From the NCBI GenBank assembly GCA_016235865.1, contig JACRIK010000030.1:124001-188000 (forward strand): DNA of 64,000 nucleotides. The letters run 5' to 3'. Below, one piece after another: positions 819 through 56,994 of the stretch (the first letter of the stretch is position 1; each line of letters starts with the position of its first letter). This DNA comes from Planctomycetota bacterium (lineage in GTDB: Bacteria > Planctomycetota > MHYJ01 > JACQXL01). The position numbers and the translations under genes are program-made. The notes beneath the pieces were generated by a model, which did no database searches, was not told the DNA's origin, and was given only the letters and a program-made list of their open reading frames with translations.

Positions 819-1258
819 GGTATGGCACCCACTACGGGTAGGTATGGTACCCTCTATGGGTAGGTATGGTATCCACTATGGGTAGGTATGGTATCCACTA
901 CGGGTAGGTAGGGTATCCACTATGGGTAGGTACGGTACCCTCTACGGGTAGGTATGGTACCCGGTACGGATAGGTACGGTACCCACTACGGGTAGGTATG
1001 GTACCCTCTACGGGTAGGTACGGTACCCAGTACGGGTGGGTATGGTATCCACTATGGGGAGGTATGGTACCCTCTACGGGTAGGTATGGTATCCACTATG
1101 GGGAGGTATGGTACCCTCTACGGGTAGGTATGGTATCCTCTATGGGGAGGTATGGTACCCTCTACGGATGGGTATGGTACCCTATACGGGAGGATATGGT
1201 ACCCTATAGGGGTGGGTATGGTACCTACCATAGGGGGGTATGGTATCCTCCACTGGAG
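819..1258. repeat. Tandem array 1: 20 units of exactly 22 bp
   Basis: The core GGTAYGGTAYCC recurs at 819, 841, 863 and so on to 1237, always 22 bases apart with no insertion or deletion, although bases within units vary. Between cores, TACCC and GGGTA are separated by 5 bases, so each unit can form a small hairpin. The 22-base unit is not a multiple of three, and the open frame across it (from 998) is a by-product. The rest of 694-1323 holds no convincing gene. Confidence 0.95.
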
Positions 1259-28029: not shown

Positions 28030-28135
28030 TATCTTGGGCAAGCGGGATAGACCCCACATTTCCTAATGCTTGATTTCCCTGCATGGCAAGCCATCGTTTT
28101 CTAAAAACTGCCTTTTCAATCTTGCCTCCACGATA

Positions 28136-28355
28136 GTTACTATCTAGCTCCACGATAGGCACTACCTAATCCCTTGGTAGGCACTACCTAACCCCTTGGT
28201 AGGCACTATCTAACTCTTAGATAGGCACTACCCAGCTCATTGATAGGCACTATCTAGCTCCTTGGTAGGCACTACCCAGCTCATTGATAGGCACTATCTA
28301 GCTCCTTGGTAGGCACTACCCAGCTCCTAGGTAGGTACTACCTACGGCTAACCAG
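28136..28355. repeat. Tandem array 2: 10 units of exactly 22 bp
   Basis: Units begin at 28136, 28158, 28180 and onward to 28334 with no indels. Each contains a 13-base inverted repeat: GGTAG-GCA-CTACC or GATAG-GCA-CTATC. Several units change both arms together, so pairing is kept. The unit sequence is unrelated to array 1, but the period is the same. Confidence 0.95.
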
Positions 28356-28356
28356 G

Positions 28357-28560
28357 GAGGGGGGATACCCTACCCCCCACCGGCTAAGGATTGACCATAG
28401 TGTAACCCTAATATTATCAATATGTTAAAAATTGGGCATCATGAAAATATCTATTGAAACCTAAACTTTTCACATTTTGGTTGTGCCAAAATATTAATTT
28501 TTAAACTGAAAAGTTTATCATTCACCTATGCCACGAAAACCGTCTTTTATAGTATTAACC
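28357..28560 (+). mobile_element. Conserved array-associated block, copy A, with truncated HTH gene
   Basis: Begins with the hairpin AGGGGGGATACCC/TACCCCCCACC and matches 55696-55900 over about 190 bases with few substitutions. Shared parts are TGTAACCCTAATATTATC, the inverted repeat AAACTTTTCA (28463-28472) with TGAAAAGTTT (28507-28516), and the start of the HTH gene at 28528 (MPRKPSFI). After codon 8 the similarity ends and the frame continues into unrelated sequence. Confidence 0.8.
28528..28560 (+). pseudogene. 5' fragment of the small HTH gene
   Basis: The first eight codons (MPRKPSFI) and the upstream block equal those of the intact gene at 55869. The sequence then diverges just after the shared TTAACC. 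The 61-codon frame here encodes no HTH motif, so this is a broken copy. Confidence 0.7.
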
Positions 28561-28569
28561 ATTAATCTA

Positions 28570-28610
28570 GGGACACAATACTCATTTATTAGAAATAGGT
28601 ATTGTGTCCC
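28570..28610. repeat. GGGACACAATAC hairpin
   Basis: GGGACACAATAC (28570-28581) is mirrored perfectly by GTATTGTGTCCC (28599-28610) with a 17-base AT-rich loop. It starts soon after the truncation point of the HTH copy, so it may be the end of an inserted element. Resemblance to hairpins near REP-associated transposases is a recollection, not a search result. Confidence 0.55.
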
Positions 28611-28621
28611 CGGATTCGAAG

Positions 28622-55121: not shown

Positions 55122-55340
55122 AACAGCGCGGCGAGAGGGGCACATCGAGGTTGTAATCCGTAATCCGGTGACGAAATCAGCATTCCGGCCAATCCGCAGT
55201 ATTTTCAAAATTCCCCCTTGACACATAATTCGGGGGACACCATACCGAATTCCCGGCCCGATGCCTGTCGGGACAGGGCTGAATTGCCATCAGCTTTTTT
55301 GTTCTTGGCCCCAGCGTGCATACATTCCATTCCTTACATC

Positions 55341-55692
55341 GTTACTATCCAATCTTTATATCGTCAGCATCTAACATTTATATCGTTACCACCTAATTTT
55401 TACATCGTTACCATCAAACTTCTACATTGTCACCATCAAATCTTTATGGGGTGGCCATCAAATGCCTACGTGGTTACTATCGAATTCCCTGGTCGTTACC
55501 ATCTAGTCATTACATGGTTACCATCAAATCTCTGCATGGTCACCATCCAATATTTACGGGGTGGCCATCAAATCATCAGCTGGTTACTATCCAATATTTA
55601 CAGGGTTGCTATCAAATATTTAAATGGTTACCATCTAATTCCTACAGAGGCGCTATTAACCCTAAGAAGTGACACTATCCTGGGTTATTCCA
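55341..55692. repeat. Tandem array 3: 16 units of exactly 22 bp
   Basis: Cores such as GTTACCATC, GTCACCATC and GTGGCCATC begin at 55341, 55363, 55385 and every 22 bases to 55671 with no indel. Some units contain the near-palindrome ATGGTTACCAT. The sequence differs from arrays 1 and 2. Unit divergence is higher than in the other arrays. A weak extra unit may precede at 55319. Confidence 0.95.
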
Positions 55693-55695
55693 GTA

Positions 55696-55868
55696 GGGGG
55701 GATACCCCACCCCCCCCCACCGGCTAATGATTGACCATATTGTAACCCTAATATTATCAATATGTTAAAAATTATGGTGTCATGAAAATACCTGTTGAAA
55801 CCTAAACTTTTCACATTTTGATTATGCCGAAATATTGATTTTTACACTGAAAAGTTTATCATTCACCT
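55696..55868 (+). mobile_element. Conserved array-associated block, copy B
   Basis: Begins with GGGGGATACCCCACCCCCC and ends at the HTH start codon. It matches 28357-28527 closely, including TGTAACCCTAATATTATC and the inverted repeat AAACTTTTCA (55804-55813) with TGAAAAGTTT (55848-55857), which ends 11 bases before the ATG. The inverted repeat is placed to act as an operator or leader hairpin for the HTH gene. Confidence 0.8.
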
Positions 55869-56141
55869 ATGCCACGAAAACCGTCTTTTATCAGTGTTAA
55901 CCCCGAGGAGATTGAGCAGGTCCGGCGTTTCTTAAATGCCTCCTTATACTGCGACCGTAAAACAAAGAAACTTAAGGGACATCGCTGTCGTCATCGGGCA
56001 CAGATAGTTTATTTTTCGTTATTGGGCCGGACTGTTTCCTGGATTGCCCATGAATTCCATGTTAGCCAACAGACCGTCTGGAAATGGCGCAGGATATATA
56101 AGCAGCAAGGACTTGAAGGATTAAAGGGCCGGTATAATTAG
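55869..56141 (+). CDS. Small IS630-like helix-turn-helix protein of the array module
   Basis: 90 residues. RHRAQIVYFSLLGRTVSWIA then HEFHVSQQTVWKWRRIYKQQ and GLEGLKGRYN match the N-terminal HTH of IS630/Tc1-type transposases and related orphan regulators. The DDE catalytic domain is absent, and the protein ends where the linker to it would begin. It may be a stand-alone DNA-binding protein or a remnant. Its first eight codons and its leader are duplicated at 28528. The natural DNA targets to consider are the adjoining inverted repeat and the 22-bp hairpin units. Confidence 0.75.
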   Translation: MPRKPSFISVNPEEIEQVRRFLNASLYCDRKTKKLKGHRCRHRAQIVYFSLLGRTVSWIAHEFHVSQQTVWKWRRIYKQQGLEGLKGRYN

Positions 56142-56142
56142 T

Positions 56143-56994
56143 TTATTTCTTCTCCTTGGCTTCAGCCAGCAATTTTGCCAGAAAGGCAGCGCTGGATTTC
56201 GTGAGTTCGGCGTCTCCGGCCCATTTACCGTCCGGCCAGCGCAGGCGTTTGCCATGATGGAAACCAAGGCTTATCACGAGCTGGTCCTTTTTATAAAACT
56301 CAAATGTCGGGTTGCCACAGCATGCGCAAGAGACGTGTCGCAATATATTGGTTCCGACGTTTATGTTTTTAATGATATTTTGTATAAACTCCGGTCTTTT
56401 CTCGTCAATCAGAACTTTTTCATCTGTGGTATTACGATGACAGGTGCCCCCTGACCTGACTTTTATCCGGTCGACTCCCTCAAGCGCCTTATGGAGTGAA
56501 TCGTTATCCCTATTAATAATGAAGTAAAAGCTGAAAGCTAAAACCGCGCCTATAGCCAGTATTGGTCCGGCTTTAGTTTTGAACGGCCATCTTTTCGCTG
56601 CTTCTTGGTTCCCAGCCGACTTCATGACCATGCGGATGTAGGTGATGCAGGTTATTGTTATTGTCACAAATCCCAGGCAGACCAGAGCATATAAAAACGG
56701 CAATTCCGGATAGAGAATAAACGTGACTGCCATTGCTAAGAATAAGAGCGTGCTTCCCAACCCGATTATCATGGCCATGATGACGCTTAAGACCATCAAG
56801 GGTCTATTGAGCTTGATGCTAAACAGAACCGCCGCTGAAATCAGGGCGACAAACAGGAATATGGCCAGCGGGATAGAAAAAGTAATGGTAAGCGAAGAAG
56901 TGTTTTTAATCCCAGCCCAGGCTAAAAGGACAATCATTCCGCCAGACAAGAGTATGGAAATAATGGCCGAGGCGATGACGATGGCTTTGCGCAT
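56143..56994 (-). CDS. Membrane protein with C-terminal Cys-containing domain
   Basis: About 283 residues. Roughly five membrane helices (1-160) precede a soluble C-terminal domain with SGGTCHRNTTDEKVL, HVSCACCGNPTFEFYKKDQL and LAKLLAEAKEKK. The CACCG motif could bind metal or form a disulphide. I do not recognise the family. The start at 56994 is set by a strong promoter whose -10 box ends 7 bases before the ATG; the longer frame would begin upstream of that promoter. Confidence 0.65.
   Translation of the reverse strand: MRKAIVIASAIISILLSGGMIVLLAWAGIKNTSSLTITFSIPLAIFLFVALISAAVLFSIKLNRPLMVLSVIMAMIIGLGSTLLFLAMAVTFILYPELPFLYALVCLGFVTITITCITYIRMVMKSAGNQEAAKRWPFKTKAGPILAIGAVLAFSFYFIINRDNDSLHKALEGVDRIKVRSGGTCHRNTTDEKVLIDEKRPEFIQNIIKNINVGTNILRHVSCACCGNPTFEFYKKDQLVISLGFHHGKRLRWPDGKWAGDAELTKSSAAFLAKLLAEAKEKK

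What the first reader, a model, noticed from the sequence alone, without database searches (positions are those of the whole stretch)
55341..56141. Candidate undescribed module: 22-bp hairpin array, conserved block and small HTH protein
An exact 22-bp tandem array runs straight into a G-run/C-run hairpin. A block of about 170 bases with the inverted repeat AAACTTTTCA/TGAAAAGTTT follows, then a 90-residue IS630-like HTH protein without a catalytic domain. The same order is found again at 28136-28560, where the HTH gene is broken. Two copies with conserved block and start codon but different array sequences point to a defined genetic unit. The HTH protein may bind the units, or the unit may be mobilised in trans.
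Basis: partly seen in the sequence, partly recalled or inferred. Interest (0 to 1): 0.85.

Follow-up and report, generated by a model that had tools for sequence, protein, structure and literature searches.

The report
22-bp repeat elements with orphan DNA-binder
This bacterium carries about one hundred short DNA elements, each a tandem array with a fixed 22-base step capped by a run of G or C; roughly one in ten also carries a gene for a DNA-binding protein that resembles a transposase without its cutting half, and wherever that gene could be checked an array sat beside it.

Summary
The unit is real and is one of many. In 1.23 Mb of the host genome I found about 40 arrays with a 22-bp step (about 1 per 30 kb, nearly all intergenic). 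39 of 40 have a G/C run at an end (background 12.5%). Arrays form families of dispersed copies with sharp borders. The finding's array has two copies with the HTH gene and two without; a third copy (28132) keeps the block but has a different array and a broken HTH gene. HTH homologues form one family over 34 loci in four genomes of one order. All 31 loci that could be evaluated have a 22-bp array within 1 kb (background 4-5%). The proteins match IS630 transposase only over its N-terminal DNA-binding part, are under purifying selection (dN/dS about 0.25-0.28), and no IS630 catalytic domain was found in the two best genomes. So the HTH is neither a freshly cut transposase nor a chance neighbour. 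Two details fail: the array is not exact, and the 22-bp units fold no better than shuffled ones. Best reading: a lineage-restricted, probably mobile minisatellite element whose fuller copies encode an orphan transposase DNA-binding protein. What the protein binds, and what moves the element, are not shown.

The parts
55293..56160 (+). Whole HTH-bearing unit; 91.7% identical over 868 bp to a second copy at G000:C1:151327-152190, with unrelated flanks
   Evidence: BLASTN of array flanks; alignment
55295..55325 (+). Left end, shared by copies of family A (CTTGGCCCCAGxGTGCATACATTCC); a similar left end precedes the 28132 array
55326..55639 (+). 22-bp tandem array, about 14 units, consensus TCAAATCTTTACATGGTTACCA
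55696..55718 (+). G-run/C-run hairpin at the HTH-side end of the array; the solo copy C3:561233 loses homology just after this point
55722..55868 (+). Conserved block with inverted repeat AAACTTTTCA (55804-55813) / TGAAAAGTTT (55848-55857)
55869..56141 (+). 90-aa HTH protein (P0001); matches the IS630 transposase profile only at its N-terminal HTH; no catalytic domain
28109..28551 (+). Third copy: similar left end, different 22-bp array (28132-28344), G-run hairpin (28359-28378), block (28379-28527), HTH gene broken after 8 codons
819..1225 (+). Solo 22-bp array (18.5 units) with G/C-run ends and no HTH; 74% identical to the array beside the HTH gene at G000:C33:25553

Best explanation
The finding is one copy of a lineage-specific family of dispersed, probably mobile intergenic elements. 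The core of each element is a tandem array with a fixed 22-bp step, capped by a G/C run. Fuller copies add a short block and a gene for an orphan DNA-binding protein derived from the N-terminal (paired-like) part of an IS630/Tc1-mariner transposase. Shown: the architecture, its dispersal, the HTH-array link, and selection on the protein. Inferred: the protein binds its own element, most likely at a two-turn (22-bp) spacing, and so represses, marks or helps maintain the element; copies without the gene are non-autonomous. The array sequence is rewritten quickly by unequal exchange or slippage (higher-order 44/66/110-bp repeats) while the step is kept. Movement would need a catalytic partner in trans that I did not identify.
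For: HTH loci have a period-22 array within 1 kb in 31 of 31 evaluable cases against 4-5% of random windows. The HTH is the only recurrent gene around 34 loci. 39 of 40 arrays have a G/C run of 5 or more near an end against 12.5%. Families of array copies with sharp borders sit at unrelated sites: family A with and without HTH, G at 93% over 531 bp, D at 88% over 384 bp. Arrays are intergenic although 89% of the sequence is coding and are not enriched upstream of genes, as expected of tolerated insertions. All nine long HTH proteins match the IS630 transposase profile, the first at positions 2-107 of 299. dN/dS 0.25 and 0.28. Precedent: residues 1-95 of the IS630-family ISY100 transposase alone, with both HTHs, bind its 24-bp terminal repeat (PMC2170065), close to the length of one unit.
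Against: No empty site, target-site duplication or terminal inverted repeat was found (searches gave no comparable site in a congener). No IS630 catalytic domain was found in G000 or G005 to move anything. Array units do not resemble the block next to the HTH gene, and unit sequence is at the random level for some close HTH pairs, so sequence alone does not support binding of the units. Many array families in the sampled part have no HTH-bearing member.
Confidence: 0.5

Rival explanations
1. Host system rather than selfish element: the HTH proteins are domesticated regulators or nucleoid/silencing proteins, and the solo arrays are their genome-wide binding clusters (iteron-like, one site per two helical turns).
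For: Purifying selection on a standalone DNA-binding protein; fixed 22-bp phase; solo arrays of the same family as an HTH-linked array exist (families A and E, window 819-1225); several paralogues per genome.
Against: Arrays show no preference for promoter-bearing divergent gaps (3 of 26 against 43 of 186); array sequences differ between almost all loci, so there is no common regulon motif; most families have no HTH member in the sampled part.
Confidence: 0.25
2. The HTH protein is a transposition repressor left from an extinct IS630 element (truncated-transposase repressor), and the arrays are decaying MITE-type relics that expand by slippage alone.
For: DNA-binding half only; the IS630 catalytic domain is found in 1 of 9 genomes of the order (a fragment in G003) but in 7 of 14 of the rest of the class; one HTH gene carries a stop (L019) and one is broken (28528).
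Against: The system is kept with the same architecture in several genera and 34 loci, under purifying selection; decay alone would not keep array and HTH adjacent.
Confidence: 0.12
3. The arrays act as RNA: transcripts made of 22-nt hairpins that bind the HTH protein or a host factor.
For: A few arrays have palindromic units (C30:55492 and window 819; the 28132 array by eye), and the G/C-run end can fold.
Against: As a class, units fold no better than shuffles (2 of 40); no Rfam match in the window; the array lies upstream of the gene in one subclass and downstream in the other.
Confidence: 0.06
4. Chance neighbourhood: truncated IS630 transposase genes that happen to lie near common minisatellites.
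For: 22-bp arrays are common in this genome.
Against: 31 of 31 against 4-5% expected; consistent ends and dN/dS below 0.3; a truncated IS630-type gene in a distant genome of the phylum (L160) has no array.
Confidence: 0.02

Closest known systems
BrickBuilt, the minisatellite-bearing MITE of Porphyromonas gingivalis (PMC4596501)
   Same: Dispersed, intergenic, non-coding elements of a tandem 23-nt repeat with flanking leader and tail; variable unit number; 19 per genome
   Different: One sequence family per species, IS5-type inverted ends, no linked protein. Here: 22 bp, about 100 per genome in many unrelated sequence families, G/C-run cap, no inverted ends found, and a linked IS630-type DNA-binding protein
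REP/REPIN with RAYT (TnpA-REP)
   Same: Many short dispersed repeats per genome, a few copies adjacent to a gene for a transposase-derived protein
   Different: RAYT is a catalytic tyrosine (Y1) enzyme and REPs are conserved palindromes; here the protein has no catalytic domain and the units are direct tandem repeats of varied sequence. The two Y1 genes in G000 have no 22-bp array nearby
IS630 / Tc1-mariner transposases (e.g. ISY100, PMC2170065)
   Same: N-terminal paired-like double HTH, profile match positions 2-107 of 299
   Different: No DDE catalytic domain; no terminal inverted repeats or TA duplication seen
Plasmid iterons and their initiator proteins (from general knowledge)
   Same: Tandem sites of about 20-22 bp beside the gene of a DNA-binding protein
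   Different: No Rep-type protein, chromosomal, many loci with different sequences

Membership tests
IS630/Tc1-mariner transposon | Paired-like N-terminal DNA-binding domain | tested here: met
   All 9 long proteins match NF033545 (best E 2.1e-19) and HTH_32/23/29/28; P0001 matches at its single HTH
IS630/Tc1-mariner transposon | DDE catalytic domain | tested here: not met
   Proteins end at about 80-170 aa, before the catalytic domain; no PF13358 in G000 or G005
IS630/Tc1-mariner transposon | Terminal inverted repeats and TA target duplication | tested here: inconclusive
   Borders of several families inspected; no inverted ends or duplication seen, but borders are known only to a few bases
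MITE | Short non-coding dispersed copies at unrelated sites | tested here: met
   Families A-H, about 370-560 bp
MITE | Terminal inverted repeats matching an autonomous transposon | tested here: inconclusive
   None found in the borders examined and no IS630 partner in the genome, but exact ends are not known
REP/RAYT | Adjacent Y1 tyrosine transposase | tested here: not met
   HTH is the only recurrent gene in 34 loci; the Y1 genes have no array near them
REP/RAYT | Palindromic hairpin repeats | tested here: not met
   Units not more foldable than shuffles
BrickBuilt-type minisatellite element | Dispersed intergenic tandem array of about 22-23 bp with distinct end segments | tested here: met
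BrickBuilt-type minisatellite element | IS5-type inverted ends | tested here: inconclusive
   No inverted ends seen by eye in alignments; IS5 ends not searched for as such
Known structured RNA | Match to an Rfam family | tested here: not met
   0 matches in the window at gathering score

The most novel reading that the evidence does not exclude
A new kind of repeat-protein system in which an orphan transposase DNA-binding protein, with no enzyme of its own, measures or organises DNA in 22-bp steps and thereby creates, maintains or spreads tandem arrays of otherwise free sequence through a bacterial chromosome.
Probability: 0.25. Interest if true: 0.9.

Novelty: new variant of a known kind. Interest (0 to 1): 0.7.

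Why it matters
Bacterial minisatellites are usually treated as passive slippage products. Here about one hundred arrays per genome keep one period while most of their sequences differ, and a conserved DNA-binding protein gene has an array beside it wherever this could be checked. If the protein sets the period, this would be a rare case where the origin of satellite-like DNA in bacteria can be tested with one small protein and one short DNA. It would also show that transposase DNA-binding domains can persist as stand-alone partners of repeats.

Tried and rejected
Hairpin units: rejected as a class property by folding against shuffles. HTH as freshly cut transposase: rejected. RAYT as partner: Y1 genes in the genome have no array near them. 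Array units equal to the sites in the block: no similarity beyond shuffles, except in two loci (L054, L070), probably because their block margin includes degenerate array units. Empty sites inside the genome and in a congener: none usable. A named host or homologues elsewhere: none in other species' genomes, viral contigs, plasmids or phages, although the pattern scans are of limited sensitivity. Structure of P0001 from a single sequence: low confidence (mean pLDDT 48.7), so no fold search was made. The profile search of solved structures gave only weak hits. The L019/L021 pair (HTH 89% alike, arrays at the random level) at first looked like proof that array sequence is free, but L019 carries a stop codon, so it is weak evidence.

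Full report
Check of the observation. The second copy at 28132-28551 is real and its HTH gene is lost after eight codons. The array is a degenerate period-22 repeat (67% matches; mean column agreement 0.78), not an exact one, and its units do not fold better than shuffled units.

A family of units, not a single one. A DNA search of the host genome (2.67 Mb, 38 contigs) gives three copies of the block: the window's, G000:C1:151724 with an intact HTH gene (91% protein identity, same stop), and the broken one. Protein and profile searches give 11 HTH loci in the host, 9 in G003 (same family), 16 matches in G005 (same order; some of them weak or other transposases), and single members in G002 and G007. 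In a sample of 246 genomes of the phylum nothing else was found apart from one full-length IS630 transposase (G091) and one truncated IS630-type gene (G124, L160), the latter without any array. Two of the weak matches in G005 and G002 (L072, L033) are other transposases. The HTH proteins are linked by BLASTP into one family over 34 loci and are the only gene that recurs across them.

HTH and array go together. A lag-22 test on 1 kb either side of each gene gives 22 as the best lag, at 41 of 88 matches or more, on one side in 31 of 34 loci; only 4-5% of random 1-kb windows reach that level. The three exceptions (L017, L018, L071) cannot be judged because the contig ends where the array should be. 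Genes of the 80-94-residue class beginning M(S/P)(Y/F/H)P have the array downstream in all 11 evaluable cases; the others (P0001-like and the 145-170-residue class) have it upstream, except L063, a broken gene, whose weak signal is downstream. In both layouts a spacer and a G/C-rich segment usually lie between gene and array.

The protein. All nine long forms match the IS630 transposase profile; the first of them spans positions 2-107 of 299, that is both helix-turn-helix units, and ends before the catalytic domain. P0001 has only the first HTH. dN/dS is 0.25 for the two family-A genes and 0.28 for L059/L060, so these look like working genes. No DDE_3 domain was found in G000 or G005 and one fragment in G003; 7 of the other 14 genomes of the class have it. 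A published precedent shows that residues 1-95 of the IS630-family ISY100 transposase alone bind and protect the 24-bp transposon end (PMC2170065).

The arrays. From 1.23 Mb of stretches (contigs C1, C3, C30 complete), 22 is by far the commonest period, followed by its multiples; 40 arrays of at least 100 bp were kept. 39 of 40 have a run of five or more G or C within 100 bp of an end (background 12.5%), and 50 of 142 runs of six or more lie in the 1.7% of sequence near arrays. 11 of 40 have a G-quadruplex-type motif at an end (background 1.7%) and 18 of 40 a GGG-stem hairpin (background 18%), so the cap is a G/C run and only sometimes a hairpin. Arrays are intergenic in 26 of 27 classified cases although 89% of the sequence is called coding. 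The one case scored as inside an ORF was not examined further.

Dispersal. Arrays cluster into families whose copies are similar from one border to another and then stop. In family A, the window copy and the C1 copy share 868 bp including the HTH gene; the solo copy C3:561233 shares only left end, array and hairpin and diverges just after it; C3:3595 is a shorter solo. The solo array at 819-1225 of the window is a 74% relative of the HTH-linked array at C33:25162. This is the pattern of fuller and shorter copies of a mobile element, but no empty site or target duplication was seen.

Sequence is rewritten, step is kept. Between HTH loci the array units are mostly at the random level of identity (about 0.45), except for the closest pairs. 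A Mantel test in the upstream class is positive (r 0.46, 0 of 5000 permutations) but rests on two close pairs; in the downstream class it is not significant. The 28132 and 55326 arrays, with blocks 91% alike, differ almost throughout and look alike only near the hairpin. The HTH genes of two of the most divergent cases (28132, L019) are broken, so it remains open whether array sequence drifts freely beside a working protein. Some long-class loci have short 22-bp-spaced TTGACA-type repeats just upstream of the gene; several downstream-class loci have a CACCTTCAG-type motif just after the stop. These are candidate binding sites, with modest statistical support, and they do not resemble the array units.

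Interpretation. Best reading: a lineage-restricted, probably mobile minisatellite element with an orphan IS630-type DNA-binding protein in its fuller copies. The two-turn spacing would fit one paired-like domain per unit, but that binding is inference. A host regulatory or chromosome-organising role is the main rival. In the papers I could search, BrickBuilt of P. gingivalis is the closest description; I found no account of such arrays with a linked DNA-binding protein, though subscription journals are not covered.

Limits. About 46% of its genome was read as stretches, so the figure of about 100 arrays is an extrapolation. Samples of relatives without HTH genes are small (35-68 kb each; no 22-bp arrays). 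Gene calling was a simple ORF method.

Noticed in passing
window 28571-28611: An inverted repeat GGGACACAATAC...GTATTGTGTCCC lies where the third copy's HTH gene is broken; it resembles the GGGGACA-type ends seen around the Y1 transposase genes of this genome.
   Followed up: partly
G000:C26:75522-76062, C3:32924, C30:58469, C1:632 and others: A second set of arrays with a 21-bp step, several containing GGGACAT-type sequence, distinct from the 22-bp arrays.
   Followed up: no
L155 and L158 (G000:C27:246341, C33:268): Two Y1 (RAYT-like) transposase genes of 236 aa flanked by GGGGACAGACCACATATTTTC-type repeats; no 22-bp array near them.
   Followed up: partly
L059:979-1905 and L060:3195-4235 (oriented): Beside two paralogous HTH loci lies a protein of about 310-350 aa that appears to hold repeated excisionase-like HTH segments.
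   Followed up: no
L069 (G003:C75:18450 and 20789): Two different HTH-plus-array units sit in tandem about 2 kb apart.
   Followed up: no
L096:5095-5262 (G001): A 24-bp array in a relative in which no HTH gene was found; possibly a related element with another step.
   Followed up: no
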